From the NCBI GenBank assembly GCA_947502595.1, contig CANNAM010000002.1, positions 62,001 to 126,000 on the forward strand: DNA of 64,000 bases, given 5' to 3'. Within the stretch, counting starts at the first letter, position 1; every line of letters begins with the position of its first letter. Below, in pieces: positions 37,383 through 53,780 of this stretch. The notes beneath the pieces are model-generated. The model was not told the origin of the DNA. It saw nothing but the letters and a program-made list of their open reading frames with translations, and ran no database searches. The translations under genes and the position numbers were made by a program. The DNA comes from an uncultured Marinicella sp. (GTDB lineage Bacteria; Pseudomonadota; Gammaproteobacteria; Xanthomonadales; Marinicellaceae).

Positions 37383-38567
37383 ATGACAGACAATCAAAAG
37401 CCAACGTTCATCAAACACTTGATTCCAATCTTCATCATCATCGCTGTGGTTTTTGTGTTACTTATGCTCATGTCAAGCATGAAAACTGAACCGGCGAAAG
37501 TGCCTGACCAACCTCAGGGATTTTTAGTCTCCACCGCACAAGTTCAAGCAAGCAGTTTAACTGTTCACATTGAATCGCAGGGTACAATCCAACCAAAACG
37601 TCAAATCAACTTACTTGCAGAAGTCAGTGGCAAAGTCCAAGCAATGAATGAGGCTTTTACCGCTGGCGGCAATTTCAAAGTGGGTGATGTGTTGGTGCAG
37701 TTGGATCCTGCTGACTATCGTGTGGCCGTGGCCCGGGCTGAGGCCAATCTGGCCAGTGCCCAAGCCAGCCTGGATCTGGAACAGGCCAAATCAACACAAG
37801 CCAAAAAAGACTGGCAATCTTTTGGTAAAACAGGCCAACCCAGTGACTTGTTACTCAACATCCCACAGTTAGATGGGGCCATAGCCAGTCTGAAAGCAGC
37901 CCAAGCTGATTTACTGAAAACCCAACGCGACCTGGAAAAAACCGCCATCAAGGCACCATTTGACGGTACTGTCATCAGTAAGGCAGTCGACTTGGGACAG
38001 TTTGTCGGCCAGACTGGACAACTCGGTGTGATTGCTGGCACCTCTGTCGCCGAGGTTCGATTGCCTTTAAGCAACACAAACTTGAGCAAGCTGGAACTGC
38101 ACAAACGTGACTTGATTGAACGCCCCTTGGTTGTGACCTTCTTTGACGAACAAAACCATGAAGTCACCACTGGCAGTATTCAGCGCTTAGAGTCAAGTAA
38201 AGACAGCCGCACACTGATGAATTATGCAGTGGCTGAAATACAAAACCCTTTGGCCCAAGGCCTGTTGTTCAACAGTTTCATGGTAGCCAACATCACAGGT
38301 GCGACTTATGAACCCGTTTACCCAATACCAACGGCTTGGATGATGCCTGATGACCAAGTTGCAGTCTACAAGCAAGACCACACTCTGGAGATCAGAAAAG
38401 TTCATGTAGTGCATCAAACCAATGCATATTTCTACGTGGATCAAGGTGTGGATGACAGCGACCTGATTATCACCACGCCGATTCAATCACCCATACCAGG
38501 CATGATTTTACGACACAACAACACAAGTACTACACCAGCTGTGGCCGATGACGAGATGCCTCAATGA
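37383..38567 (+). CDS. RND efflux periplasmic adaptor subunit
   Basis: The 394-residue protein has an N-terminal membrane anchor (about 12-33), a lipoyl half (IESQGTIQPKRQINLLAEVSGKVQ), a coiled-coil hairpin (about 115-185), the second lipoyl half (LEKTAIKAPFDGTVISKAVDLGQFV) and beta-barrel and membrane-proximal domains. It links the RND permease to an outer-membrane channel. The stop overlaps the permease start by four bases (ATGA). No outer-membrane factor gene is present next to it. Confidence 0.93.
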   Translation: MTDNQKPTFIKHLIPIFIIIAVVFVLLMLMSSMKTEPAKVPDQPQGFLVSTAQVQASSLTVHIESQGTIQPKRQINLLAEVSGKVQAMNEAFTAGGNFKVGDVLVQLDPADYRVAVARAEANLASAQASLDLEQAKSTQAKKDWQSFGKTGQPSDLLLNIPQLDGAIASLKAAQADLLKTQRDLEKTAIKAPFDGTVISKAVDLGQFVGQTGQLGVIAGTSVAEVRLPLSNTNLSKLELHKRDLIERPLVVTFFDEQNHEVTTGSIQRLESSKDSRTLMNYAVAEIQNPLAQGLLFNSFMVANITGATYEPVYPIPTAWMMPDDQVAVYKQDHTLEIRKVHVVHQTNAYFYVDQGVDDSDLIITTPIQSPIPGMILRHNNTSTTPAVADDEMPQ

Positions 38568-41500
38568 ATAAAGCATGGGATCGTGGCATCATCTATTGGT
38601 TTGCCAGCAATCCAGTGGCGGCTAATTTATTGATGGTGTGCCTGCTGTTGGCAGGACTGTACACAGCAGCCACCCTGAAAAAAGAGATGTTTCCAGCCAC
38701 CACCATCAATCAAGTATTGGTTACCATGGCATACCCTGGGGCTGCGCCTGATGAAGTGGAAAAAGGCATTTGCGTTAAAGTTGAAGACGCGGTCACTGGC
38801 TTAGAAGGCATAGACAAGACCACTTGTGTGGCGAATGAAGGTTTTGCCCGCACCAACATTGAAATTGCCAATGGCTACGATGTAAAAAATGTCATGGCCG
38901 AGATCAAAAATCGCATTGATGGCATCAACTCATTCCCAGTACAAACAGAAAAACCCATCATCAGCGAAATCATTGTTCAACAACCAGTGATCAGGGTTTC
39001 GGTGTTTGGACAGGTTGCTGAGAAACAATTGTTATTGGCCGCTCAGGACATCCGTGATGAAATCATAGATCTGCCCAATGTATCAATGGCCGCCTTGTCA
39101 GGTAACCGTGATTATGAAATCGCCATTGAAGTCAAAGAAAATACCCTCCGGCAATATAAACTCAGCTTTGATGAAATAGCCCGCGCTTTGCGAGCAGCTT
39201 CGATTGATTTACCGGGTGGCTCAATCAAAACCGATCGCGGTGATGTGTTATTGCGCGCAGTGGGTCAGTCGTACACTGGCGAAGAATTTGCCCAAACTGT
39301 GATTCGCACCAACCCTGATGGATCGCGTTTATTACTCGAGGACATAGCAGTCATAAAAGATGAGTTTGAAGAAGACACTGAACGAGGACAATTTGATGGT
39401 AAACCAGCCATCAGTATCACCGTCAGTTCAGTGGAAAGTGAATCCATCATTGAAATTTCCGACCGGGTTTTACAGTACGTCAGCGCCAAACAACAACAAA
39501 TGCCGGCCAATATTTCTATTGCCACCTGGTCTGATACTTCACACTATGTGCGTGGTCGCTTGGATATGATGCAACGCAATATGATTCAGGGTGCAGTTTT
39601 GGTGTTGTTGACCCTGACTTTATTTCTACGCCTCAAAGTGGCCTTTTGGGTGATGTTGGGTTTACCAGTGGCCTTCCTTGGCGCCTTTGTCTTTTTACCC
39701 TTGGCCGACATCAGTATCAACATGCTCAGTATGTTTGGTTTTATTGTGGTGCTGGGTATCGTGGTTGATGATGCCATTGTGATTGGTGAAAGTGCCTATG
39801 CAGAAATTCAAGACAAAGGCCACTCGCTGAAGAATGTGGTGGTCGGTGCCCAAAAAGTCGCCACACCAGCAACTTTCGGGGTCTTAACCACCATTGCAGC
39901 CTTTGCCCCAATGTTGTTTGTAGGCACGGTTTTTGGTTCGTTTTTTGAAGCCATTGGTTGGGTGGTTATTTTGTGTTTGTTGTTTTCATTGGTTGAATCA
40001 AAGTTAATACTGCCAGCCCATTTAGCCCACATGAATTCCTCGGACCTTGGCACCAAGACACCCGGGCTGTTGCTGCGAATCCAGCGCAAAGTGAATCAAG
40101 GCCTGGAACATGTCATTAATCACAACTACCAACCGACCATCGCCAAAGCCATCCAACGACCCATGCTGACCATGACCCTCTTTGCAGCCATCTTTGTCTT
40201 GAGTATGGGCTTATTTAAAAACAACCTGGTGCGTTATGTGATGATGCCTGATTTTGTTTCTGATTTTGTTCAAGCAGACTTTGTCATGGCCCAGGGTACG
40301 CCCAAAGCACGCAGCAAAGAAGTGTTACAACAGGTAGAGGATGCCTTGGTTCAACTGGACAAAGACGTCAGCGCAACAGTGGGGAAAACCAATGGTGCGG
40401 TGTTCACCCACCGGTTTGCTGTATTGGACTCACAAATTTCAGGGCGAGTGGTGGTTGAACTGGTTAAAGATGAATACGCAGTGATAGATGGTAAAGAAAT
40501 GCTGAAGCGCTGGACTGAATACATTGGCGAAATTCCTGGCGCCACCCAAGTAGGCACTTTGTCCTTATCCGGTCCTGGACAAGGGGCTGATATCAGCCTG
40601 AAATTGGTTGGTAGCGACACCGAAGAACTGCGACTGGCAGCCGATATCCTGGCCACTGAACTGGCCACTTTTGAAGGTGTTTCCGACATCAGAAACTCGA
40701 TGGAAACCGGCAAAGACGAAATTGAATTATCAATCAAACCAATTGGCCGCAATTTAGGTCTGAGTCAAAACGAGCTAGGTACTCAAATAAGACAAGCTTA
40801 TTATGGCGAAGAAGTGCAACGTCTGCAAAGTGGCAATGATGAAGTCAAAGTGATGCTGCGTTACGATCGCGCCAGCAGAGAATCACTGAAATCTCTGGAC
40901 GATTTGCGCATCCGCACCAGCCAAGGTGATGAGCTGGCTCTGCATACAGTTGCTGATGTCAGTCTGGGCAAAGCACCCAACGCCATTGAACGGGTGAACC
41001 GCAAACGTGCAGCACGCATCTCTGCCATGGTGGACAAAGCCATTGCCGACCCACAAACCATAGTCAACCAATTGATGCCCGAGGGTGATGAGCCCATTGT
41101 CGCAGCGTACCCAGGGGTTGGCTATGACCTCGATGGCAACAGCAAAGAGATGAATAATCTGGCCAACAACCTGGCTGTTGGCATGGCCGCTGCCATATTG
41201 CTGATTTATGTACTTTTGGCCATTCCTTTGAAATCATACTTACAGCCATTTATCATCATGCTGGTCATTCCATTTGGCATCACTGGCGCCATCATTGGGC
41301 ATTTGCTGTTGGACTTAACCTTCAGCATGATGTCAATATTTGGGGTGATTGCACTGACCGGTGTGGTGGTTAATGATTCCTTGGTGATGGTCGATTACAT
41401 CAACAAACAACGCCGCCAAGGCATTGATGTGATTGAGGCTGTTAAACATGCCGGCAGCCGCAGATTTCGCGCCATATTATTGACTTCACTGACCACTTTC

Positions 41501-41683
41501 TTTGGTCTGTTACCCATCATGTTTGAGCAATCACTGCAAGCCAAAGTCATCATCCCAATGGCCGTGTCTTTGGCCTTTGGTATCTTATTCGCCACCGTGA
41601 TTACCCTGGTCATGATTCCCACCCTGTATGCTTTATTGGACCGAATCAAACCTCACAAGAGTATATACAAGAACAGTTTATAA
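38564..41683 (+). CDS. RND multidrug efflux permease (HAE-1-like)
   Basis: The 1039-residue inner-membrane pump has twelve predicted membrane helices and two large periplasmic loops. The proton-relay Asp pair is in helix 4 (VVLGIVVDDAIVIGES, near residues 402-403). N-terminal wording (NLLMVCLLLAGLY..., YPGAAPDEVEKGI) places it among the HAE/AcrB-like pumps. It exports hydrophobic drugs or lipids with the adaptor. Substrate cannot be predicted. It is convergent with the island's exporter gene (35-base gap). Confidence 0.93.
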   Translation: MNKAWDRGIIYWFASNPVAANLLMVCLLLAGLYTAATLKKEMFPATTINQVLVTMAYPGAAPDEVEKGICVKVEDAVTGLEGIDKTTCVANEGFARTNIEIANGYDVKNVMAEIKNRIDGINSFPVQTEKPIISEIIVQQPVIRVSVFGQVAEKQLLLAAQDIRDEIIDLPNVSMAALSGNRDYEIAIEVKENTLRQYKLSFDEIARALRAASIDLPGGSIKTDRGDVLLRAVGQSYTGEEFAQTVIRTNPDGSRLLLEDIAVIKDEFEEDTERGQFDGKPAISITVSSVESESIIEISDRVLQYVSAKQQQMPANISIATWSDTSHYVRGRLDMMQRNMIQGAVLVLLTLTLFLRLKVAFWVMLGLPVAFLGAFVFLPLADISINMLSMFGFIVVLGIVVDDAIVIGESAYAEIQDKGHSLKNVVVGAQKVATPATFGVLTTIAAFAPMLFVGTVFGSFFEAIGWVVILCLLFSLVESKLILPAHLAHMNSSDLGTKTPGLLLRIQRKVNQGLEHVINHNYQPTIAKAIQRPMLTMTLFAAIFVLSMGLFKNNLVRYVMMPDFVSDFVQADFVMAQGTPKARSKEVLQQVEDALVQLDKDVSATVGKTNGAVFTHRFAVLDSQISGRVVVELVKDEYAVIDGKEMLKRWTEYIGEIPGATQVGTLSLSGPGQGADISLKLVGSDTEELRLAADILATELATFEGVSDIRNSMETGKDEIELSIKPIGRNLGLSQNELGTQIRQAYYGEEVQRLQSGNDEVKVMLRYDRASRESLKSLDDLRIRTSQGDELALHTVADVSLGKAPNAIERVNRKRAARISAMVDKAIADPQTIVNQLMPEGDEPIVAAYPGVGYDLDGNSKEMNNLANNLAVGMAAAILLIYVLLAIPLKSYLQPFIIMLVIPFGITGAIIGHLLLDLTFSMMSIFGVIALTGVVVNDSLVMVDYINKQRRQGIDVIEAVKHAGSRRFRAILLTSLTTFFGLLPIMFEQSLQAKVIIPMAVSLAFGILFATVITLVMIPTLYALLDRIKPHKSIYKNSL

Positions 41684-41718: not shown

Positions 41719-43854
41719 CTATATACTGGCAATTTTATTATTTACGCTATTCAGCTCAATCAGTTTGCTGCCTTCAATGGTAACTATTCTATCTGCCATC
41801 GCGATGGTGTCTGGCCGGTGAGCCACCATGACTCGGGTAATATTTAGCTTTTTAATGGTTTCATTAACCTGCTTCTCCAATGCCACATCTAAGCTTGAGG
41901 TGGCCTCATCCAAGAATATGATTTTGGGTTCTTTATACAATGCTCTGGCCAGCAATATTCTTTGAATTTGGCCACCAGACAAACTGTTACCCATGTCCCC
42001 TATTGGTGTATGGTAACCCAGTGGCATGTTATCAATGTCATCATGAATCGCAGCCATTTTGGCATATTCTTTGACCTTGTCAAAATCAACATTTGTATCA
42101 AAAAAAGTGATATTTTCCAAGATACTTCCTGACAGCAGTTGATCACTTTGCATCACTGTAGCAATCATTTTTCGATACGTTTTGAGTCCAATTTTTCGAA
42201 TGTCATACCCTCCTACTTCGATACTTCCTTGGTTAGGTTCTAACAAACCCAGCATGATTTTAATCAAGGTTGTTTTGCCCCAACCCGATGGCCCAACAAT
42301 CACCACCGACTCACCTTGCTTGATATGTAACTCAGTGTTATCAAATAACTTGGCAGAGTGATCAGAATATCTGAAGGAAACCTGTGACAATTTAAGTTCG
42401 CCTACTATGTTACTTACTCCAATTTGACCCTGGGTATTTTTCTCTTTTTCGGTTAGAACTATGTCTCCCAGTCGTTCCATATGCAGGGACAGCATTTTAA
42501 ATTGTATGGCTTTTTCAATCAGTGCTGAAGACCGTTGTACCAGCTGCCGCTTATAAGTCATAAAAGCAAACAACATACCAACAGTAAAAGAACCTGCAAC
42601 CACTGCGGATGCCGCAAGGTACACAATAAGGATATTTTCAATTCCAAACAGTAAGCCATTAAGAAAGTTATAACCCACACTCAGTTTGCCCACTTTGATC
42701 ATTGCGTTGACATTATCAGCATAATGATTTTGCCAAATAACTTGGCGTTGGCTTTCATTACCGAATAATTTAACTGCTTGAATGGCTCTGACTGTTTCTA
42801 TGAAATTGGTGTTTTGACTGGCATGAGTAGTGATGACTTCTTCGGTCATGCGTTTATTGGTTTTATATAATAGCACCCTTGAAATGGTGTAAGTTGAAAT
42901 CGCAAACACCACTATCATGGCCAATTGTGGGCTATAAAAAAATATCATCACCAACAGACCTATCACCATCAAAGCATCCACTACCGCTTCAACCAAACCA
43001 GTGGTTAATATGTCTTTCACCTGCTGCAATGAACCAAAGCGCGAAATCACATCACCTATATGCCTTTTTTCAAAATAAGACATTGGAAGTTTGATTAAGT
43101 GTCTAAATAAATTACTGGCAATTTGGACATTTAACTGTGAACCCATGTACAGGATAACCAGCCCCCTTAGTGCAGTTATTGACACTGAAACTAGCATCAT
43201 TAAACAAAAACCCAATGCCAGTAATTTGAGCAAATCCATGTCTTGAGAAACAACCACCTCATCAATGACAAGCTGTAAATAAAACGGAGAAATTAGGGTG
43301 AAAGTTTGAATCAATAAAGACAACGCAAGAATTTGAATCAATACCCGCTTAACGCCTTTAATACGAGACCAAAAGTCTTTTAACTTGGCTTTATTAGTTT
43401 CTTTTTTTGGTTCAAAATCAGGTGATGGCATCAGTTCCAAAGCCACACCTGAGTAGTGCTGCATGAACTGTTCTTGGCTCATCACTTTAAGTCCAGCTGC
43501 AGGGTCATGAATGATGAATTTATTGCGTTTGATGTTTTTTAAAACAACAAAGTGCTTTTCATCCCAATGTAAGATGGTTGGCTTCGATAATTTGTTAAGA
43601 TTATTTATATCAACCCTCAAGGGCCTTGAGTTCAATGCCAAATCATCAGCAATTTGGATCAAATCAGTCAGTGTAAGACCTCTTCCTGAAGCAGCATGAA
43701 CGGCTCGTAGGCTGTTCAAATCAATTTCATGACCATGGTAATTTGCCACCATTGCCAAACAAGCCAAACCACACTCTGCGACTTCAGTTTGCATGATTAT
43801 TGGCAGCCGTTTACCCCATTTATAATTCAACAGTGCATGTGTGTTTTCAGTCAT
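41719..43854 (-). CDS. C39 peptidase-containing ABC exporter of the RiPP cluster
   Basis: The 711-residue protein has an N-terminal C39 peptidase domain with complete catalytic set: Gln22, Cys28 (QTEVAECGLACLA), His101 and Asp117. Six membrane helices (about 165-440) and an ABC domain follow, with Walker A GPSGWGKTT, signature LSGGQIQR and Walker B IIFLDEATSSLD. Such PCAT exporters cut double-glycine leaders and translocate the mature peptide through the inner membrane. It starts directly after the hlyD-like stop. The nearby precursor has a matching GG leader, so it is the likely substrate. Confidence 0.95.
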   Translation of the reverse strand: MTENTHALLNYKWGKRLPIIMQTEVAECGLACLAMVANYHGHEIDLNSLRAVHAASGRGLTLTDLIQIADDLALNSRPLRVDINNLNKLSKPTILHWDEKHFVVLKNIKRNKFIIHDPAAGLKVMSQEQFMQHYSGVALELMPSPDFEPKKETNKAKLKDFWSRIKGVKRVLIQILALSLLIQTFTLISPFYLQLVIDEVVVSQDMDLLKLLALGFCLMMLVSVSITALRGLVILYMGSQLNVQIASNLFRHLIKLPMSYFEKRHIGDVISRFGSLQQVKDILTTGLVEAVVDALMVIGLLVMIFFYSPQLAMIVVFAISTYTISRVLLYKTNKRMTEEVITTHASQNTNFIETVRAIQAVKLFGNESQRQVIWQNHYADNVNAMIKVGKLSVGYNFLNGLLFGIENILIVYLAASAVVAGSFTVGMLFAFMTYKRQLVQRSSALIEKAIQFKMLSLHMERLGDIVLTEKEKNTQGQIGVSNIVGELKLSQVSFRYSDHSAKLFDNTELHIKQGESVVIVGPSGWGKTTLIKIMLGLLEPNQGSIEVGGYDIRKIGLKTYRKMIATVMQSDQLLSGSILENITFFDTNVDFDKVKEYAKMAAIHDDIDNMPLGYHTPIGDMGNSLSGGQIQRILLARALYKEPKIIFLDEATSSLDVALEKQVNETIKKLNITRVMVAHRPDTIAMADRIVTIEGSKLIELNSVNNKIASI

Positions 43855-45117
43855 TTATATGCGTCCTTTTATCGCGTAAAAAGGTGCCAGCAACCAATCC
43901 AATAACGTCCTTTCTTCCAACATAATATCAGCTGAAACTGCCATGCCAGCTTGTAGGTCCATGCGCTTCCCAAAAGCACTGACATGTTGTGAATCCAGCT
44001 CAACTTTAACTCGATAAACTGGGTCTCGGGTTGGTAATGTTCGTTCCAGATCACTGGGGTTAATGGGCGCTTTTGCTACATCTAAAACCAAACCTGAATA
44101 CTGGCCAAATTGCTGGTATGGAAAAGCATCATAACGAATGCGAACCTGCTGTCCTGGCTGGATAAACCCAATGGCTCTTGAAGGTAAAAATAACTCGGCA
44201 TAAAACAAATTTTCTGCGGGCACAATACTTAACAAATATGTGTTGTTAGAAACTCGCTGTCCAGGGTAAGTTTGTACTGAAGTTACCAGGCCATCAATAT
44301 TTGCTTTAATACTGTATGAATCATTGCCTTCTAACTGGATGATTCGTTCCTCAATAGAGGTGTATCTTTCTGTTAATTCTTGGACTTGATTGAGGTGTAA
44401 AAGTGGTAGTTTTTCAAGTTGATTCCGCATGCCACTGACTGCAGCTTCTACCACCAACTTATTTCTGGCCGTTTGATTTATATTTGATTCTGCTCGCAAT
44501 AATGCATCTTTTTTAACCCTAAGATCAGATTCAGTAACAAATCCATCGAACGACAATTTTTCAAACTTTTGCCATTCTTGCTCAGCCATTACAAGCTGAT
44601 TATTTTGAATTTGAATTTGTTCTGTAAGTTGATTCAATTGTTGTTGTGAGTTTTTTATGGCTGAATCAAGGCGCTGAATTTCACCTTTTAGTACAGAAGA
44701 TTCATTCTTAATTCTGTTACTTATTTCTGTTTTACTGGACTTTAATTTTTGGATGATTTGTTGGTTGACTGAGACATCCGCCAGAGTGTCTTGTTGGGTT
44801 GATATTTCAACCAATACATCACCTTTATTGACTTGTGAACCCTCTATTATCAATGTATTTTCGATCACACCTACCATCGATGTAACAACTTTTTCAATGC
44901 CTTTGCTGGGCACCAGGTAACCACTAACGGTTTCTTTTCGATGGTAAGTACCCATAGATATCAATACCACAAACAAAACAATGAACAAGACCAAAGCCAA
45001 AGTAATTGCACTGAATGACACAGGTTGAATCAACAGCACCTCACCCTGCAGTCCTGATGTATCGGCAGAATTCTTTTGTTTTGTCTCAGATTCTGATTTG
45101 TCTGATAAACTCATCAT
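43855..45117 (-). CDS. HlyD-type membrane fusion protein of the RiPP cluster
   Basis: About 420 residues, with one membrane segment (around 35-57), a lipoyl/barrel-sandwich part (YLVPSKGIEKVVTSMVGVIENTLIIEGSQVNKGD) and a long coiled-coil hairpin (about 120-235) typical of bacteriocin-export adaptors. The frame is open from GTG at 45123, but an AGGTG ribosome site lies just before ATGs at 45117 and 45114, so I start it there. It bridges the PCAT exporter to the outer membrane; no TolC gene is nearby. It is separated from the precursor gene by a hairpin. Confidence 0.9.
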   Translation of the reverse strand: MMSLSDKSESETKQKNSADTSGLQGEVLLIQPVSFSAITLALVLFIVLFVVLISMGTYHRKETVSGYLVPSKGIEKVVTSMVGVIENTLIIEGSQVNKGDVLVEISTQQDTLADVSVNQQIIQKLKSSKTEISNRIKNESSVLKGEIQRLDSAIKNSQQQLNQLTEQIQIQNNQLVMAEQEWQKFEKLSFDGFVTESDLRVKKDALLRAESNINQTARNKLVVEAAVSGMRNQLEKLPLLHLNQVQELTERYTSIEERIIQLEGNDSYSIKANIDGLVTSVQTYPGQRVSNNTYLLSIVPAENLFYAELFLPSRAIGFIQPGQQVRIRYDAFPYQQFGQYSGLVLDVAKAPINPSDLERTLPTRDPVYRVKVELDSQHVSAFGKRMDLQAGMAVSADIMLEERTLLDWLLAPFYAIKGRI

Positions 45118-45159
45118 ATTCACCTGCTTAGTTACCGGTTTTAATTGAATAATAAAATT

Positions 45160-45186
45160 CAGCCAAAAAACTGTGTTTTTTGGCTG
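45160..45186 (-). terminator. Hairpin between precursor and export genes (possible partial terminator)
   Basis: Perfect 11-base arms CAGCCAAAAAA (45160-45170) and TTTTTTGGCTG (45176-45186) with a 5-base loop lie 8 bases after the precursor stop. In the minus direction it is followed by AATTTTATTATT. The A/T-rich stem may also work as an mRNA end stabiliser. Confidence 0.65.
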
Positions 45187-45194
45187 ATTTTAAA

Positions 45195-45485
45195 TTACTT
45201 AATTTCACCTTCATGGGTGTTATCGCAGTGACTGCTGGGGCCAGTATCGCCTGTCGGACCAGGGCCACCAGGACCAGTGAAGCCAGTTGGGCCAGAAGGA
45301 CCAGTTATGCCACCTGGTCCGGTAGGCGCAGTAAATGCAGTAGTTCCGGCAGGAGGACACAAATTAGAACCATCTCCTGTAGTCTGTGTATGTGTACCAC
45401 CTGCAACTTGACCTATTTCATTGGCGGTCAACTCGCGCATTGTATTGGTTTCAATTGATAACTCTTGGTTGTTAAAATTTTTCAT
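45195..45485 (-). CDS. RiPP precursor peptide with GG leader and collagen-like core
   Basis: The 96-residue peptide has a 30-residue leader ending MRELTANEIGQVAGG, a classical double-glycine leader for C39 exporters. The predicted core (31-96) has 14 Thr, 4 Ser, 16 Gly, 10 Pro and two Cys (Cys43, Cys87). Residues 56-84 are ten consecutive Gly-X-Y units (one shortened to Gly-Pro), with Thr/Ser in seven of the Y positions. I choose ATG 45485 because AAGAGA precedes it by about 7 bases; the internal ATG at residue 16 has no ribosome site. It lies between the LanB-type dehydratase and the exporter genes, so Thr/Ser dehydration is the likely modification. I know no described RiPP with this core type. 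Confidence 0.85.
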   Translation of the reverse strand: MKNFNNQELSIETNTMRELTANEIGQVAGGTHTQTTGDGSNLCPPAGTTAFTAPTGPGGITGPSGPTGFTGPGGPGPTGDTGPSSHCDNTHEGEIK

Positions 45486-45547
45486 ATCATTTCTCTTTTA
45501 AAATAATTATTTACAATGTGACCAACCTTGATCACGGCTTATATAAC

Positions 45548-45564
45548 CATTGAACTGTTCAATG
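45548..45564. promoter_or_regulatory. Perfect palindrome upstream of the precursor gene
   Basis: CATTGAAC and GTTCAATG flank one central base. It starts 9 bases after the dehydratase stop and ends about 60 bases before the precursor ATG. It could be an operator for separate precursor transcription or an mRNA processing hairpin; no T-run follows. Confidence 0.5.
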
Positions 45565-45573
45565 ATTGATATT

Positions 45574-48500
45574 TCATAATCCAATCAGATTTTCATGATT
45601 GACAGTGTTGATTTGTCTGCTTAAGCCAGCTGCAACCTGATTTCCTGGTGTGAATTTTCTGGCTATAACTGTACGGGTGTATCGCATTAAATAGTGGTAA
45701 ACAATCCATTCATTGGCCCTACCAAGCAATACAAAACTCCGGTTACAATCCATGTGAATTAAACTTTGAAGGATTGATAACTCATCTTTGTTATTTTTTT
45801 CACAGGCCTGTTTTAACTGGCTGACCGTACGGCTATAAGTTGCATAGGCCTTGGCTATAACTGGACTTTGGAGGGCGGTTAAAAAATCAGGTGATACCGC
45901 CTCTGCCACTTGTTTCATGTTCATTCGGTAATTTTCACTGAGCTTTTTCTTAGTGAATTCATTGTTCCCAAATTCCCGATCATAGGAAGCTGCGGATTGT
46001 TTAAAATAAGCTTCTAATTTATCTAATGAACCGCACATGCCTAATGCCAGTTGCCAAGTCAAATGTAAACTCAATTGCCAGCGCAACTCATCTCGATTTA
46101 TTAAACTTGCTGTTTGCTGAATAAAATCAGTTACGATTAAACTGTTGTGATAAAAAAGCTGTTCACACAAGGGGAGGAGTTCTGGTCCTCCATAACGCTC
46201 AAATTCAGGCATATGTGATGATTCAGACACACTTGTGATTAAGCCTTGTTGGTACAGTGTTTTGATTTCAGGGTAGAGTGAAGCATCAATCTCATCTGTC
46301 TTAAATTGTTGCTTCAACTTAAAACGTATTCTGATATGAAAGTCTGGATCCGTGTACCTGATAAAATGCCAATGCTTAATCTTACCTTCAGCCACCAGCT
46401 TATTGGCAAGCCCAGACAAGTGGTCTGCCAACAACCGATCAGCTGATGCTTCACCTGTATATATTTTCAAGTACTTCCATGCTTCATTTGGTAAAGAGGC
46501 TTTTTGTTTGGCCTCGCTGATAGCAAGGTGTGTACTTGTTTCAGTGTCCTTTTGCTCTGCGTTTTGTCCATGGGATGCAAATAAAGGCAGAACAACCTCA
46601 TGCCTAAAAACAGCAGTACCTCGGCTGATCAACTCAGACGTTTTTTCATTCAAAGATTCAATTAAAATAACGGTACTTTTTTTCTTAACTAATTCACTGA
46701 TAAGCATCAAACAAGAAAACGCAGATTCTAAATTAAAATCTAAAATGTTATCGCCTTCTTTAATTGCCACAAATTTACTTAGCTTTCTAAGCTTTTTAAT
46801 TTTTTTCAGCTGTTCTATTTTTGCTTCAATATCCTTGCAACTTTGTAAAGATCGAATTTCATGTACACTAATCAACCAACGTTGTGGTGAGAGAATGATG
46901 TTGTCTATTCTTATTTCAGGCAGGTATGGCAACAAATCTAATGGTTTACTTTTTATCTGTGAACTAAAATAACCCGCTTCGTATTGCAGTGCATTTAAGA
47001 ATTGGTATACCGGTAAATTTAAACCAGAAGTGTTATGAGCTGATGCTAAACGAGGTGAAATTTCTGTTCCCAGCTTTTTAGAAAAAAGCACCATTCTGCC
47101 CCGCTGTATTTTTAAAAATAAATCCTCACATTTAATTTGATTATCAGCATCAATGTCTGAATCTCCAGGGCTGTAAATTATTTCTTTATTGCGCAATTGA
47201 GGGCGTCCAGAAATATTCCCAATAGTAGATTGTTGGGCATGGATAATTTCAGCCTTAATCACATTGGGCTGAAGGGCTTGCTCTTGATCGGCTAAGTCTT
47301 TGCATGAATCTGCCAGGAACTGATCTCCACAGCAAAAACGACCCAATAATGACAATGCCGAAGGCCCACCTATGCTGTTCATTTTGAATAATGTCCTCCC
47401 TTCATCCTCAGCTTTCATAAAAGTTCCTAACACAGAAACTGTATCTAAAAATGCACCTTTGGGAACCGGAAAGTAAGGCTTCAATGTTTCAAAATCATCC
47501 AACTTTATGGTTAATAAACTGGCATTTTTTCTGATGGCTTCAACCACCCTAACCAGCATAAAAGCATCGAGAGCCTCCCATTTAATTTGGCTATTTCCTT
47601 GCTGTTGACCAAAACCAATACCATTGAGTAAAGGTGAACGTCCATTCCTTTGAGGACCAAATCCTATGCCGTTGTCAACATCCAAAGCTTCTAACAAAGA
47701 CACTTCTGCATCTTCATAGCGCTGCTGGAATTTATGGGTAAAATCTTGTATTAATGAACTGGGTTTCCAGAATAACCCTGCCAATTTTTGTACTGTATCA
47801 ATTACATTGTTGACCTCTTTTTGTCCCAATTTTTGCTGTTGCCCGGATCTGAATGCATCTATATGAATCCACTTCTTAATATCAGCATTTGGCAACATCA
47901 GCCCAATGGCTTGCTCGACTTGGGTCAACTTATTCGGAAGTTCACTTTCATCAAGTTCATTGATGGCAGCTATCTTGTCTTGTATTTGCAGAGCCTGAGA
48001 CAAAAGTTTTGAGTCGACACTAGACTTCTTGGCTCGTTTCAAGAGTGAGTCAAAACTATTTCTGCTCCCAACCACAAAACCTAAATAACCCTCTAAAATT
48101 TGGTTATCTAGCAAATCATAGATAAATTTTGTCAGTTCCGACTCTTTTAAATGTCTGAATTTATGTTTTAATTGAGTAACAACATCTTTCACCATAGTCC
48201 AGTTTTTACAGGCTTGTATGGTGACTTGAATAGCATGATTAATTTGAACTGCATCCATGTTATACGTGTTGTAATTCTCTTTTATTTTTTGGCGTACAAA
48301 ACGGTATTCACCAGCCAACTCATACAAGCTTGAGTTTGCCCTGACTTGTAATTTCATATGTTGATGATTAGCACACCATGTTTGAAACTGTTCAGCAATC
48401 ATATTCACACAGCTGTTATCCAATCGTGCATACAGGCGTATGGGTTCAGGTATGTTTATTTGTGTTTCATCAGCTACGGGTAGTGACATCACATTTGAAA

Positions 48501-48816
48501 ATGCGCCAAAGGGGGTTGGTCTGGTTGACATCCTGACTATATACTTATAAATGGATGATGCTAACTTAAGGTTTTCTACAGACAATTGATCACTAAGTTG
48601 ATCTAATTTTTCGTATAAAGATGCCGAGGCAAGTCTAATTGACTGTGATACCTCATGATCACCAATCAATCGTTTTAACTCGATCAATGAGTTTTGCAAC
48701 TGCCAATCTAAGTTTTTTTCAGCATTATTGTTATGAAGTATATTTGTACTATTCTCAGGCAAAAGAGGGGTGCGCAAGACTGCAAATTTTGCTGGCTTAA
48801 TACTCCAATTATTCAT
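45574..48816 (-). CDS. Class I lanthipeptide-type dehydratase (full-length LanB)
   Basis: The 1080-residue protein has the N-terminal glutamylation domain (PF04738 type, about 1-720) with YIVRMSTRPTPFGAFSNV and later LGRFCCGDQFL and NKEIIYSPGDSD. The C-terminal elimination/SpaB-C domain (about 785-1075) has WKYLKIYTGEASADRLL, WHFIRYTDPDFHIRIRF and the EFERYGGPELL signature. Such enzymes glutamylate Ser/Thr of a precursor using Glu-tRNA and eliminate glutamate to give dehydroamino acids. Both halves are in one chain, unlike split thiopeptide or pinensin systems. No LanC cyclase, oxidase or cyclodehydratase is adjacent. It is the first gene of the minus-strand cluster. Confidence 0.9.
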   Translation of the reverse strand: MNNWSIKPAKFAVLRTPLLPENSTNILHNNNAEKNLDWQLQNSLIELKRLIGDHEVSQSIRLASASLYEKLDQLSDQLSVENLKLASSIYKYIVRMSTRPTPFGAFSNVMSLPVADETQINIPEPIRLYARLDNSCVNMIAEQFQTWCANHQHMKLQVRANSSLYELAGEYRFVRQKIKENYNTYNMDAVQINHAIQVTIQACKNWTMVKDVVTQLKHKFRHLKESELTKFIYDLLDNQILEGYLGFVVGSRNSFDSLLKRAKKSSVDSKLLSQALQIQDKIAAINELDESELPNKLTQVEQAIGLMLPNADIKKWIHIDAFRSGQQQKLGQKEVNNVIDTVQKLAGLFWKPSSLIQDFTHKFQQRYEDAEVSLLEALDVDNGIGFGPQRNGRSPLLNGIGFGQQQGNSQIKWEALDAFMLVRVVEAIRKNASLLTIKLDDFETLKPYFPVPKGAFLDTVSVLGTFMKAEDEGRTLFKMNSIGGPSALSLLGRFCCGDQFLADSCKDLADQEQALQPNVIKAEIIHAQQSTIGNISGRPQLRNKEIIYSPGDSDIDADNQIKCEDLFLKIQRGRMVLFSKKLGTEISPRLASAHNTSGLNLPVYQFLNALQYEAGYFSSQIKSKPLDLLPYLPEIRIDNIILSPQRWLISVHEIRSLQSCKDIEAKIEQLKKIKKLRKLSKFVAIKEGDNILDFNLESAFSCLMLISELVKKKSTVILIESLNEKTSELISRGTAVFRHEVVLPLFASHGQNAEQKDTETSTHLAISEAKQKASLPNEAWKYLKIYTGEASADRLLADHLSGLANKLVAEGKIKHWHFIRYTDPDFHIRIRFKLKQQFKTDEIDASLYPEIKTLYQQGLITSVSESSHMPEFERYGGPELLPLCEQLFYHNSLIVTDFIQQTASLINRDELRWQLSLHLTWQLALGMCGSLDKLEAYFKQSAASYDREFGNNEFTKKKLSENYRMNMKQVAEAVSPDFLTALQSPVIAKAYATYSRTVSQLKQACEKNNKDELSILQSLIHMDCNRSFVLLGRANEWIVYHYLMRYTRTVIARKFTPGNQVAAGLSRQINTVNHENLIGL

Positions 48817-49253: not shown

Positions 49254-49565
49254 ATGAAAAATATATACATCACAACTATACTGTCAATCATGGCACTCGG
49301 CTTGTTGGCCACAGGCATGATTCACCAACCAGCTTCAGCACAAAGACCCAATTACGACCGCCCACCAATGTTTATCACTTGTTACCATGAAGTAAATGGG
49401 GTTAGGGATCCAGTTCCTTATGCAACAGGCCCCTATGAATTGGGCTGTCCAGCTTGGGGCTCAAGTCCAAGTGCTGCTGTGAGAGAAGCCGAGTTAAAAG
49501 CAATAGAAAAGATGATTGGTCTTCCTCCACATTTATGTAAAGAAGTTGGCTTACCTGATTATTGA
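49254..49565 (+). CDS. Small secreted protein of unknown family (103 aa)
   Basis: A signal peptide covers about residues 1-29 (hydrophobic run, PASAQ cleavage site). The mature part of about 74 residues is rich in Pro and Tyr (QRPNYDRPPMF...) with three Cys (TCYHE, GCPAW, LCKEV) and a C-terminal helix (AVREAELKAIEKMIG). I recognise no family. It lies divergent from the LanB cluster and upstream of the hybrid regulator on the same strand. Roles as immunity protein, signal for the regulator or structural partner are all speculation. Confidence 0.7.
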   Translation: MKNIYITTILSIMALGLLATGMIHQPASAQRPNYDRPPMFITCYHEVNGVRDPVPYATGPYELGCPAWGSSPSAAVREAELKAIEKMIGLPPHLCKEVGLPDY

Positions 49566-49772: not shown

Positions 49773-52700
49773 ATGGTGTCAAATCCATTCTTATTAAATA
49801 AATTTTTCACCTTACTGTTGGTATGTGTTTTGGGGTTTTACAAACCAGATGCCGCTGCCGTGTTCACTGAAATTAACAGCCCTTTTAAAAACCCTATAAT
49901 AAAAATTCAACAAGACCAACTGGGCTTTATATGGATAGCCACAGCGGTTTCAATTCAACGTTTTGACGGTTATCAGTTCGAAGTTTTGGACCTGGAAAAT
50001 ATTGGTGATGATGCCTTAACTAAGGTGACTGATTTTATTATCACGGACAATGATTTGGTCTATATAGCAACTGCAAATAAAGGTTTGCTAGAGTACGCTA
50101 TCAATACCCAAGCCAAACCAATCAAATCACCAAGGATTAATGACACCAAAATCTATAAATTACTGCACGATCAAAAATCACTGTGGGTGGCAACAGACAA
50201 AGCCCTCTATCAATTAGAGAATACCCAAGTCAGGCAATTTCTATACCCTGATAGCAAGATATTGGTAACTAACATGATTAAAAATGCTGACAACGGGCTG
50301 TTACTCAGCGCCATCAACTCACTGTATCATTTCAATTTTATAGATAATTCTTTTCAGCTAATTCATTACAACCAACACAACAGCAGCTATATTTGGAGTC
50401 TAGCCTACTCTAACCAGTCCGGTTTATTACTATCTACAGAAGACGGCTTATACCAAGGTCACTCAGACTTACACAGTTGGAAAACAATCAGGCCCGATTT
50501 AATTCAACATCAGGTCAGAACGTTGGTAACCAATGACAATCAAGTTTGGCTCGGTTCAGTAAAAAATGGGCTGGTATCATTCAACCACCATACTCATCAA
50601 AATATTGCCAATTTACAGCACTTTAACACATCAAATTCCCGCATAAAAAACAACGAGATAAATCATCTGTTTCTAGACAGACAAGGCAACTTATGGGTTG
50701 GTTTTTATAATGGTCAAATTAATTTACTGGGTGAGCAAGCCCTTGCGTTTGGTTACAACAAAGGCATAGAAATGGATCCCAGCTGTACGTCATCGGCAAA
50801 GTACATATATCACATCAATGAGGACCAACAACACAATATTTGGTTGACTACGAAAGACGCCCTAATCAGGCTCAATGCACAAGAAGGCAGGTGTGATGTC
50901 ATCAACCCTTGGTCAATTAATGATTTTGACCAAGCCGCTATTCCAGTCACTACTTTCTTTCCTGCTGATGGCCATGCATGGGCTTATTTTTATCGACTTG
51001 GTTTCATAAAATTCAATAACAACGCATTAAAACCAGAAGTCATCGAAGTACATGAAGTCAATCGGACTGACATGGTTCTGTATGAATTCATCAAACAAAA
51101 AGGCAATAAATTTATTTTTGCAAGCAGTTCTGGGGTAATGGAATATGACACAACAGAGCGGGTATTTTCATCTACGAACGCCACCGAAGAACAGTTGAAT
51201 GATACCATCATCAATGATGTGTTTCCGCAACCCAACAATCAGTATTATCTGGCAACCACCCATGGTGTTGCTGTGTATAATTTCAATCAAGATTTAGTTT
51301 CTTCATTGACTTCAATCAATCAGCATTTAAACCACCAAGATACAAATGCCCTTTATATTGATAATCAGAAAAACCTGTGGGTGGGTACCAATAACTCTGG
51401 CCTGTATAAATTTGATAAGAACCATGAACTGATAAAGCACTATTTTCAAGACCAAAATATAAAGATACACCAAAGCATCAGCAACATCATTGCAGATGAC
51501 AACCAACACCTGTGGATCACAACTGAAAATGGACTGATTAAACTATCAACCAAATCCGATCAAATAAGTGCTTATACCACAGCTAATGGACTCCAAAGTG
51601 ATCATTTCAACTCTGGAGCTGCAATAAAAACTCAATCTGGGCAAATATACTTAGGCGGCGTCAATGGATACAACGCTTTCTTTCCAAGTGAAGTTTTTGA
51701 TCAGCCATTACCTGAAATTGCAATCAGTGAATTAAAACGGTTCAACCAACTTATTCTTCCAAACCAAGACTACCAAGGCTTCAAAATTAGTCAATCGATT
51801 GCTTATCTAAAAAAATTGGCTGTATCACACCAAGACTATATCATCAGTTTCAGCTTTACCGACCTAAACTATTTAAATCCTGAAACAAGTCAATTTGCCT
51901 ATAAATTGTCAGGTTTTGACCCCGATTGGAATTATGTACTTAGCAACAATCGAACCGCAACATATACCAACTTACCTCGCGGTGAGTTCAGATTTTTAGT
52001 TAAAAGCACTGACCTTACTGGTCAGTGGCGCAAAGAAAATAAAAGTATAATGCTTGAAGTCAGTCCACCGCCTTGGCTCAGTTGGTGGGCACTTTGTAGC
52101 TACGTTTTGCTGCTAGTGGCATTGGTGTACCTGTATGTCAAATTGAAAACCAAATCGAACCAAAAAATCGCCGATATGCTTAGGTTTGAAGTCAAAGAAA
52201 AAACCTTGGAGCTGAACTCTCAAAAACAAACTGTTGAGTCATTATTGGCTAAGAAAAACGAATTATTTTCTCATGTATCCCATGAATTTCGCACCCCTTT
52301 GACTTTGATTTTGGGCCCCATCAAAGAATTGTTAAATAGACAAATCAATGAAGATGACATCAACAGTCTTAACACTGTCAATCGCAATGCCAATCGACTG
52401 CTTTCACTGGTTGAACAATTATTACAAATTGCGCGGGTGTCAGATTTCAAAAAAGTCATAACCAAACCTCAAAAGACAAAATCACAAGTCAAGTCTCTGG
52501 TTGATTCATTTCAACATTTGGCGCAGATAAAAAAAATCAAACTTCAACTGAACGTCAATCAACAAACAGTCATTGATGTCTCTGAACAGTTTATCGACGC
52601 TGTATTAGGTAATTTGTTGTCAAACGCAATCAAGTACACCCCAATCGGTGGCGAAGTAACAGTCCGAGCTGTTGAATGCGACGGGTTATTTGTCTTGTCC

Positions 52701-53780
52701 GTCCAAGACAACGGACCCGGACTGAGTGATGAACAAAAATATGATATCTTTAAACGTTTTAAGCGTTTAGATGTTCATCAAGATATTGATGGTATTGGCA
52801 TTGGTCTTGCAGTGGTAAAAGAAGTGGTCAAAGTCAACCGAGGGCTAATAGAAGTGGAAAGTGAATTCGGTGTGGGCAGTGATTTCATCGTCAAGGTCCC
52901 TTTATCAGAAACTACAGAAGCTGAAGAATTATTTACTGTCAGCACACTGGTTAAACAGCTACAAAATGAACCCAATATCAGCAGCAGACCCATTCCGCAA
53001 GCTATCGACACATCAGAAGATGTGACTTTGAATACAGTACTGGTCATTGAAGATAATCGCGACATGCGCGAGCATATACTGAATATAGTTAACCCTCACT
53101 ATAATTGTTTTTCAGCTGAAAATGGCGTCAAGGGATTGGCCACCGCCATTGAACAAATTCCTGACATCATCATCAGTGATGTGATGATGCCTGAAATGGA
53201 TGGCTTTAAAGTGGCACGTATCATTCGTGCCGATGAACGCACATCACATATCCCTTTGATGCTGTTAACTGCTTTGAATGACAAAACCAATAGGATAAAG
53301 GGTTGGCGAGAGAATGTAGATGCTTACATGACAAAGCCGTTTGATCGGGATGAGTTATTGGCACAACTAGAAAACATGCTGACCATTCGCGATATTTTAA
53401 AAAGCAAGGCTGCCCAGTCAATAAAACACGGTGCCTCAAAAAACATTACTTTGGCTAAAATAGATCGACAGTTTATTGAAAAGCTTAATGAGGTCATCGC
53501 ATTAAACTACCAAGACCCTATGTTAAATCGGACAAAAATAGCCAGCAAAATGGCGGTTTCAGAAAGGCAGTTACAACGCAAGGTTAAAGCTTTGATTGAT
53601 CAAAATCCGATAGATATGCTGCGTGAATTTCGTTTAAATCAAGCTAAAATTTTCCTCAAAGATGGATATCAAGTCAGTCAAGTGGCTGATGATTGTGGCT
53701 TTAATTCATTGTCTTATTTTTCCCAATGTTTTAAAGCTCAATTTGGCATGTCACCAAAAAAGTACCAACAAGCCAATTAA
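49773..53780 (+). CDS. Hybrid two-component system regulator (propeller sensor, kinase, receiver, AraC output)
   Basis: The 1335-residue one-protein two-component system has a signal peptide (about 1-27), then a large periplasmic sensor of repeated two-component propeller units (e.g. DQLGFIWIATAVSIQRFDGY, DRQGNLWVGFYNG, DNQKNLWVGTNNSGLY) and a Y_Y_Y domain. A membrane helix lies at about 768-790. The HisKA domain has His837 (HVSHEFRTPL) and the ATPase has NAIKYTP, DNGPGLS and GIGIGLAVV boxes. The receiver has Asp1136 (SDVMMPEMDG), followed by a C-terminal AraC-type helix-turn-helix pair (SERQLQRKVKAL...CGFNSLSYFSQCFKAQFGMSPKKY). Such HTCS are common in Bacteroidetes for glycan sensing and less so in gammaproteobacteria. 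Likely controls the island. Confidence 0.93.
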   Translation: MVSNPFLLNKFFTLLLVCVLGFYKPDAAAVFTEINSPFKNPIIKIQQDQLGFIWIATAVSIQRFDGYQFEVLDLENIGDDALTKVTDFIITDNDLVYIATANKGLLEYAINTQAKPIKSPRINDTKIYKLLHDQKSLWVATDKALYQLENTQVRQFLYPDSKILVTNMIKNADNGLLLSAINSLYHFNFIDNSFQLIHYNQHNSSYIWSLAYSNQSGLLLSTEDGLYQGHSDLHSWKTIRPDLIQHQVRTLVTNDNQVWLGSVKNGLVSFNHHTHQNIANLQHFNTSNSRIKNNEINHLFLDRQGNLWVGFYNGQINLLGEQALAFGYNKGIEMDPSCTSSAKYIYHINEDQQHNIWLTTKDALIRLNAQEGRCDVINPWSINDFDQAAIPVTTFFPADGHAWAYFYRLGFIKFNNNALKPEVIEVHEVNRTDMVLYEFIKQKGNKFIFASSSGVMEYDTTERVFSSTNATEEQLNDTIINDVFPQPNNQYYLATTHGVAVYNFNQDLVSSLTSINQHLNHQDTNALYIDNQKNLWVGTNNSGLYKFDKNHELIKHYFQDQNIKIHQSISNIIADDNQHLWITTENGLIKLSTKSDQISAYTTANGLQSDHFNSGAAIKTQSGQIYLGGVNGYNAFFPSEVFDQPLPEIAISELKRFNQLILPNQDYQGFKISQSIAYLKKLAVSHQDYIISFSFTDLNYLNPETSQFAYKLSGFDPDWNYVLSNNRTATYTNLPRGEFRFLVKSTDLTGQWRKENKSIMLEVSPPPWLSWWALCSYVLLLVALVYLYVKLKTKSNQKIADMLRFEVKEKTLELNSQKQTVESLLAKKNELFSHVSHEFRTPLTLILGPIKELLNRQINEDDINSLNTVNRNANRLLSLVEQLLQIARVSDFKKVITKPQKTKSQVKSLVDSFQHLAQIKKIKLQLNVNQQTVIDVSEQFIDAVLGNLLSNAIKYTPIGGEVTVRAVECDGLFVLSVQDNGPGLSDEQKYDIFKRFKRLDVHQDIDGIGIGLAVVKEVVKVNRGLIEVESEFGVGSDFIVKVPLSETTEAEELFTVSTLVKQLQNEPNISSRPIPQAIDTSEDVTLNTVLVIEDNRDMREHILNIVNPHYNCFSAENGVKGLATAIEQIPDIIISDVMMPEMDGFKVARIIRADERTSHIPLMLLTALNDKTNRIKGWRENVDAYMTKPFDRDELLAQLENMLTIRDILKSKAAQSIKHGASKNITLAKIDRQFIEKLNEVIALNYQDPMLNRTKIASKMAVSERQLQRKVKALIDQNPIDMLREFRLNQAKIFLKDGYQVSQVADDCGFNSLSYFSQCFKAQFGMSPKKYQQAN

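What the first reader, a model, noticed from the sequence alone, without database searches (positions are those of the whole stretch)
41719..48816. Compact RiPP cluster: LanB dehydratase, collagen-like precursor, HlyD and C39 exporter
Seen: four minus-strand genes in one direction, a full-length LanB (both glutamylation and elimination halves), a GG-leader peptide, an HlyD protein and a PCAT with intact Cys28/His101/Asp117. Known: these families together make, cut and export a dehydrated peptide. Inference: the product is a modified 66-residue peptide unlike the usual lanthipeptide cores. I cannot match the combination to a described system from memory.
Basis: partly seen in the sequence, partly recalled or inferred. 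Interest (0 to 1): 0.92.

Follow-up and report, generated by a model that had tools for sequence, protein, structure and literature searches.

The report
Cyclase-free dehydratase peptide operon
Four neighbouring bacterial genes look able to make, chemically dehydrate, trim and export a small threonine-rich peptide without the ring-closing enzyme that normally goes with this kind of dehydratase, so the product may be an open, reactive chain rather than the usual ringed antibiotic.

Summary
Four minus-strand genes (41719-48816) encode a complete class I LanB, a 96-residue GG-leader peptide with a 66-residue core, an HlyD adaptor and a C39 exporter. All nine LanB residues published as essential are present, and the predicted fold matches NisB, MadB and MibB along its length. 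(1) No LanC-family gene was found in this genome. (2) The operon is an accessory island: three same-genus genomes have the flanking genes without it. (3) Its LanB belongs to a three-member lineage (100/100 support); none has a LanC nearby, and two of two tested genome-wide have none. All three carry related GG leaders followed by unrelated Thr-rich cores with one or two Cys: G-P-T triplets here, (VT)4 in another. (4) 'Collagen-like' describes this one core only. Best reading: LanB dehydrates Thr/Ser to Dhb/Dha, C39 cuts after GG, C39-HlyD exports, and the product is a linear (at most spontaneously bridged) dehydropeptide. Dehydration, linearity and function are inferred. A new variant of a known kind; by the LanC criterion not a lanthipeptide cluster.

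The parts
45574..48816 (-). Full-length LanB dehydratase (glutamylation + elimination domains), 1080 aa
   Evidence: PF04738 and PF14028; R95 R99 T101 D133 D320 R493 / R831 R874 H1021 present (residue list from PMC12241602); AF2 model pLDDT 85 matches MibB, MadB and NisB over 896-957 residues, Z 29.5-33
45195..45485 (-). Precursor peptide gene, 96 aa
   Evidence: leader type shared with L063 and L159
45396..45485 (-). Leader, 30 residues ending VAGG
   Evidence: RELTANEIGQVAGG aligned with RDLTPSELDLVAGG (L063) and LELTPSEMNGVAGG (L159)
45198..45395 (-). Core, 66 residues, 18 Ser/Thr, 2 Cys
45234..45320 (-). Gly-X-Y tract, Thr or Ser often in the third position; imperfect 27-nt repeat units in the DNA
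   Evidence: 7 Gly in register, 69 of 100,000 shuffles; family D1; third copy only 63%
45159..45187 (-). 13-pair hairpin between precursor stop and HlyD, possible partial terminator
   Evidence: terminator-like sites in the region are not above the shuffle mean (6 found, 5.9 expected), so weak
43855..45123 (-). HlyD-type periplasmic adaptor
   Evidence: TIGR01843 4.6e-41, below its cut-off
41719..43854 (-). C39 peptidase-containing ABC exporter (PCAT), Cys28/His101/Asp117 present
   Evidence: only C39 match in the genome at E <= 0.001
37383..41683 (+). Left flank: adaptor + RND permease, conserved at the empty site (not part of the island)
   Evidence: RND 80-83% identity in G003, G017, G005, G007
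49254..49565 (+). Right flank: small Cys protein with a hydrophobic N-terminus (not part of the island)
49773..53780 (+). Right flank: Reg_prop hybrid histidine kinase with response-regulator and AraC domains; present beside the empty site, so not brought by the island

Best explanation
An accessory four-gene RiPP operon. LanB binds the GG leader, uses glutamyl-tRNA to glutamylate Thr/Ser of the 66-residue core and eliminates glutamate to give Dhb/Dha. The C39 domain then cuts after VAGG. The PCAT, HlyD and an outer-membrane channel encoded elsewhere export the peptide. No LanC-type cyclase was found in the genome, so the product is a linear dehydropeptide, at most with spontaneous thioether links at its two Cys. 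Shown: the genes, the catalytic residues, the leader similarity, the absence of LanC by profile search, and the insertion. Inferred: dehydration itself, linearity, export route, and the biological role (most likely an exported antagonistic or signalling peptide; no immunity gene recognised).
For: Gene content and domains. Nine of nine published essential residues in the window LanB and in both relatives. Full-length fold match, plus a match of residues 155-246 to TigE; that this is the RRE region is recalled. No PF05147 match in the own genome, 99.78% complete, nor in the NORP309 genome, while the same search found it in 4 of 4 LanC-bearing genomes included as controls (G326, L105, L130, L131). 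Three-member LanB clade 100/100 with related leaders and Thr-rich cores of 1-2 Cys, and no LanC in the flanking DNA held. Empty site in G003, G017, G005 and, over a shorter stretch, G007.
Against: No product is known. Thr next to Gly/Pro may be a poor LanB substrate (recalled from nisin work). The cores keep 1-2 Cys, which would be odd if cyclisation never happens. NORP309 has no C39 exporter in the 21 kb read and no close PCAT in the genome, though that MAG is 85% complete. A Cys-poor core does not by itself mean cyclase-free: L108 (P. luteoviolacea IPB1) has LanC beside three Cys-free cores. Three other LanB loci of the same order (G1108, G1066, G881) do have a LanC. The genome is a 64-contig draft. 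Genome-wide LanC was not tested for the third member, G970.
Confidence: 0.58

Rival explanations
1. Thioether rings still form: spontaneously from Dhb/Dha and the 1-2 Cys, or by a cyclase not related to LanC, so the product is a lanthipeptide in chemistry though not by genes.
For: All three cores keep Cys (2, 1 and 1). Spontaneous thia-Michael addition to Dha/Dhb is established chemistry (recalled).
Against: No candidate cyclase in the operon; no LanC in 20 kb of L159. At most one or two rings for 7-18 Ser/Thr.
Confidence: 0.2
2. Ordinary class I lanthipeptide whose LanC is acting in trans but was missed because the genome is a draft.
For: 64 contigs. In 13 of the 18 genomes with a LanC-less LanB locus that were given, a LanC match lies elsewhere in the genome, so trans supply is possible in general.
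Against: 99.78% complete with no PF05147 match; the sister genome also has none; all three lineage members lack it locally.
Confidence: 0.1
3. The LanB has another activity (for example, adding an amino acid to the peptide end like a PEARL) and does not dehydrate.
For: The PEARL branch of LanB-like enzymes exists (PMC11117183 and PMC11212132, starts of abstracts in the search listings). The window and L063 cores share a similar C-terminus, GEIK and GDVK.
Against: Complete elimination domain with R831, R874 and H1021. L159 lacks that C-terminus. That PEARLs lack the elimination domain is recalled.
Confidence: 0.05
4. The peptide is exported unmodified by a microcin-type C39/HlyD pair and LanB acts elsewhere or is idle.
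For: The two exporters nearest to the window's by tree path belong to loci without LanB (G676, G674); the next three, at nearly the same distance, belong to LanB loci.
Against: LanB and precursor are adjacent in all three members and no other modifying enzyme was seen beside them; the catalytic residues are kept in LanBs only 29-44% identical.
Confidence: 0.07

Closest known systems
Class I lanthipeptides with GG leaders and C39 export (Bacteroidetes families in Walker et al. 2020, PMC7268733; Pseudoalteromonas, Arsukibacterium, Alkalimonas and G326 loci found here)
   Same: LanB, GG leader, C39 protease or exporter, and in the gamma loci HlyD
   Different: They have LanC; the gamma LanBs form another clade
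NisB / MadB / MibB dehydratases
   Same: Fold; the essential residues listed for NisB and MadB
   Different: 19-20% identity in the structural alignment to NisB and MadB, 18% to MibB; nisin and MadA systems pair LanB with a LanC (PMC12241602, passages)
Goadsporin and thiopeptide dehydratases (GodF, TbtB)
   Same: Dehydrate without LanC (recalled); glutamylation-domain fold match Z 21-27
   Different: Split enzymes with azole formation (recalled); here one chain and no azole enzyme among the four genes
Wenzhouxiangella AB-CW3 lantibiotic cluster (PMC7691419, passages)
   Same: Gammaproteobacterium, lantibiotic genes next to hlyBD type I secretion genes
   Different: Uses LanM (class II), not LanB; relevant by kinship only if the window is Marinicella, which no call confirms
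Gammaproteobacterial C39/HlyD exporters (the name 'microcin-type' is recalled)
   Same: The window PCAT falls in a 25-row clade of such exporters, 12 of them from LanB loci
   Different: Its nearest row, G676, has small GG peptides and no LanB in the 20 kb read

Membership tests
LanB (class I lantibiotic dehydratase) enzyme family | Lant_dehydr_N and Lant_dehydr_C on one chain over curated cut-offs | tested here: met
   319.4 bits against 28; 180.5 against 24.4
LanB (class I lantibiotic dehydratase) enzyme family | Essential glutamylation and elimination residues | tested here: met
   9 of 9 (list from PMC12241602); invariant in the 41-row alignment
LanB (class I lantibiotic dehydratase) enzyme family | Dehydration of Ser/Thr using Glu-tRNA | not testable with these tools
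   needs enzyme assay or MS
Class I lanthipeptide gene cluster | LanC cyclase present | tested here: not met
   0 matches of PF05147 in own genome; NORP309 0; L159 0 in 20 kb
Class I lanthipeptide gene cluster | Precursor with leader and Ser/Thr/Cys core next to LanB | tested here: met
   curated leader families only sub-threshold
Class I lanthipeptide gene cluster | Lanthionine in the product | not testable with these tools
   no product known
GG-leader C39 (PCAT) export system | C39 catalytic Cys/His/Asp, GG leader, adaptor | tested here: met
GG-leader C39 (PCAT) export system | Outer-membrane TolC-type channel | not tested
   genome not searched for it
PEARL (peptide aminoacyl-tRNA ligase) | No elimination domain (feature recalled) | tested here: not met
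   PF14028 positions 1-254 of 255 matched
[quoted passage not shown]
   one 1080-aa chain
Thiopeptide / goadsporin type | YcaO azole-forming enzyme | not tested
   not among the four genes; genome not searched
Collagen-like protein | Long unbroken Gly-X-Y repeat | tested here: inconclusive
   7 Gly in register then a shift; absent from the two relatives

The most novel reading that the evidence does not exclude
A distinct class of cyclase-free class I dehydropeptides: a LanB lineage that turns Thr-rich repeat cores, such as (G-P-T)n here and (V-T)4 in G970, into linear chains with regularly spaced Dhb residues for export. LanB genomes in which no LanC was found in Holophagaceae and a Myxococcales MAG would be parallel cases.
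Probability: 0.35. Interest if true: 0.75.

Novelty: new variant of a known kind. Interest (0 to 1): 0.55.

Why it matters
The lanthipeptide survey in PMC7268733 used the LANC_like profile as bait and discarded candidate precursors without a core Cys (passages), so LanB systems with no LanC are invisible to it by design. If the product is a linear Dhb-rich peptide, it would show that a full-length LanB can be the only modifying enzyme of a RiPP pathway, and its regular repeat cores would be a clean test of how LanB chooses residues. The test needs only one enzyme and one peptide.

Tried and rejected
Rejected: a close relationship of the LanB to the gamma LanC+ clusters. It falls outside their clade in three trees, although its exporter is of their kind. 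Rejected: the hybrid kinase at 49773 and the small protein at 49254 as dedicated cluster genes. I first took them as conserved with LanB because NORP309 also has such a pair beside LanB, but the kinase family matches in 22 of 33 genomes searched, of which only the window's and G910 gave a LanB hit, and the pair is already at the empty site. Rejected: Cys-poor core as a marker of cyclase-free systems (L108 contradicts it).

Led nowhere: LanB in genome contigs with single-sequence patterns; precursor in plasmids and elsewhere in the own genome (itself only); operon DNA in plasmids; LanB pair in viral contigs; phage hits only 21% identical. The C39-like protein of NORP309 found is a 217-aa protein without ABC domains and I do not take it for the missing exporter. 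Literature: the listings (titles and starts of abstracts) showed no LanB cluster lacking LanC of this type; they did show lone LanB-like enzymes in NRPS clusters that act as PEARLs (PMC11212132). Searches were mostly noise from short words. Papers: PMC7268733, PMC12241602, PMC10352776 and PMC7691419 were seen as passages only; all others as search listings.

Limits: one search finds 20 of 80 loci with no LanC in the stretch held; with at least 7 kb on both sides it is 14 of 62. Of those 20, 18 were tested genome-wide (L102 and L112 were not): 13 have a LanC elsewhere and 5 have none, namely L063, L124 Geothrix limicola, L138, L140 and L141; L063, L138, L140 and L141 are MAGs. Trees: ORFs under 900 aa and duplicate loci (L001, L002) were dropped. 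One search cut ORFs over 1200 aa, and all ORFs taken from my list, to their last 1150 residues. Searches used hand-picked subsets (39 and 23 rows); L161, a very long branch, was left out, and L160, whose LanB is in two pieces, of all trees. In one search, which lacked L159, the placement of the window pair was unresolved. The exporter tree left out duplicate loci and ORFs under 600 aa.
Full report
Observation. The four genes are present as described: a 1080-aa LanB, an 88-bp gap, a 96-aa peptide gene, a 71-bp gap, then HlyD and C39 abutting, all on the minus strand. The domains pass Pfam cut-offs for LanB (both halves), C39, ABC and HlyD. The C39 catalytic Cys28, His101 and Asp117 are there. 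The peptide has no Pfam family and only sub-threshold NCBIfam hits.

LanB is intact. The MadB paper (PMC12241602, passages) lists R89, R93, T95, D128, D308, R483 for glutamylation and R822, R864, H1005 for elimination. Counting along the alignment, these fall on window R95, R99, T101, D133, D320, R493, R831, R874 and H1021, all identical and identical too in both relatives. All nine are invariant in an alignment of 41 LanBs. The AlphaFold2 model (mean pLDDT 85.1) aligns to MibB, MadB and NisB over 896-957 residues with Z 29.5-33, at high rmsd (18-20 A), which I put down to moving domains. Its residues 155-246 match TigE at Z 8.5; that this is the leader-binding RRE is recalled.

No LanC. PF05147 finds nothing in the 99.78%-complete genome. 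The same profile finds LanC in 17 of the 22 genomes, including all 4 LanC-bearing controls. There is one C39 match in the genome.

Relatives. LanB hits only itself in 41 near genomes, own included, 17 of them others of the same genus. There are hits, own included, in 3 of 369 genomes of the class and 7 of 398 of the order; one in each set is weak (E 3e-4 and 9e-4). The nearest is 44% identical, in MAG NORP309 (L063), whose contig is the same record as G910 C85 (64,551 bases), placed in the window's own family. So these are one genome, not two. There the order is precursor, LanB, small Cys protein, hybrid kinase; no LanC in the genome and no close PCAT. The next is G970, a one-contig genome of the same order (L159): C39 and HlyD divergent from LanB, a precursor starting 80 bases after the LanB stop, and no LanC in the 20 kb read. 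Its C39 is 39% and its HlyD 25% identical to the window's. Three other LanB loci of the order (G1108, G1066, G881) do have a LanC. The window, NORP309 and G970 LanBs form one clade: SH-aLRT 99 in the quick tree, 100/100 in the careful one.

Precursors. The three leaders share [LR][ED]LT[AP][NS]E[ILM]..VAGG. The cores do not align convincingly. Window: 66 residues, 18 Ser/Thr, 2 Cys, a Gly-X-Y tract. NORP309: 28 residues, 7 Ser/Thr, 1 Cys, PPPP-SLTITT. G970: 31 residues, 15 Ser/Thr, 1 Cys, SVTVTVTVT. So the common theme is a Thr-rich, Cys-poor, low-complexity core, not collagen. The window's tract has imperfect 27-nt repeat units, G970's a 6-nt array, so both cores may have grown by slippage or duplication (inference).

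An accessory island. In G003, G017 and G005 the genes left of the operon (36427, adaptor, RND permease) and right of it (hybrid kinase, 54576, 56050) are in the same order at 64-83% protein identity (kinase 44%), with no LanB, precursor, HlyD or C39 hit in these stretches; G007 shows adaptor, RND and kinase likewise. A small Cys protein lies in the same slot, although one search finds no blast match for it. The operon therefore sits between the RND stop (41683) and the small gene (49254). Operon G+C is 38.7%, left flank 46.2%, right flank 39.7%, so composition alone does not mark it. No integrase or insertion sequence was seen among its genes, and the repeats at its edges are weak.

Wider picture. 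Of 80 LanB loci from the genome collection, 20 show no LanC in the stretch held, 14 of 62 with at least 7 kb on both sides. Eighteen of the 20 were checked genome-wide: 13 have a LanC elsewhere, 5 do not. The five are NORP309, Geothrix limicola, two Holophagaceae MAGs and a Myxococcales MAG; the last has HlyD-C39-LanB and Ser/Thr-rich peptide candidates. By contrast the Pseudoalteromonas, Arsukibacterium and Alkalimonas loci (10 of 10) and G326 carry LanC, LanB, HlyD and C39 together. One of them, L108, has LanC with Cys-free cores, so core composition does not predict LanC.

Exporter. The window PCAT lies in a 25-row clade of gammaproteobacterial PCATs, 12 from LanB loci and 13 not, with G676 (no LanB) as its nearest row by path, G674 (no LanB) next, and three LanB loci almost as near. 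The G676 neighbourhood has small GG peptides and no LanB. The LanB and the exporter thus have different nearest kin, consistent with an operon assembled from parts (inference).

Mechanism. LanB glutamylates and eliminates Thr/Ser of the core, C39 removes the leader after VAGG, and PCAT-HlyD exports through an outer-membrane channel not looked for here. With no LanC the product should be linear or only spontaneously bridged. Role: probably an exported antagonistic or signalling peptide. No immunity gene was recognised, and nothing here separates these roles.

Verdict. A real and intact RiPP operon. It has the dehydration half of class I lanthipeptide biosynthesis but fails the LanC criterion, so it should not be filed as a lanthipeptide cluster. 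It is a new variant of a known kind, worth a one-enzyme, one-peptide test.

Noticed in passing
window 49254-49565 and 49773-53780; L063, L192-L196, L198-L201, L203: Reg_prop hybrid kinases are expanded in the family (matches in 22 of 33 genomes). In 12 of 14 loci read, a small protein with a hydrophobic N-terminus (signal peptide judged by eye) sits directly upstream; exceptions are L197 (contig edge) and L202. In 13 such sequences two Cys and one Pro are invariant; no Pfam match in the five tested. Possible ligand or partner of the kinase.
   Followed up: partly
L108 1420-2006 (minus strand): Pseudoalteromonas luteoviolacea IPB1 has three near-copies of a GG-leader peptide with Cys-free cores upstream of a complete HlyD-C39-LanC-LanB cluster.
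   Followed up: no
L138 2273-2737 and 4604-12243: Myxococcales MAG with HlyD-C39-LanB, no LanC match in the genome held, and two Ser/Thr-rich peptide candidates, one Cys-free.
   Followed up: partly
L124, L140, L141: Holophagaceae LanB clade with no LanC match genome-wide in 3 of 3; no exporter or obvious GG peptide beside LanB in the two loci read, L124 and L141.
   Followed up: no
L159 12484-12687: Precursor core with four V-T repeats next to a LanB without nearby LanC in a one-contig genome.
   Followed up: yes
L192 12074-12722; L195 7554-7871: Further small Cys proteins (a ...PLCN... then GCH.SGA...YCEI type) next to the same kinase locus in same-genus genomes.
   Followed up: no
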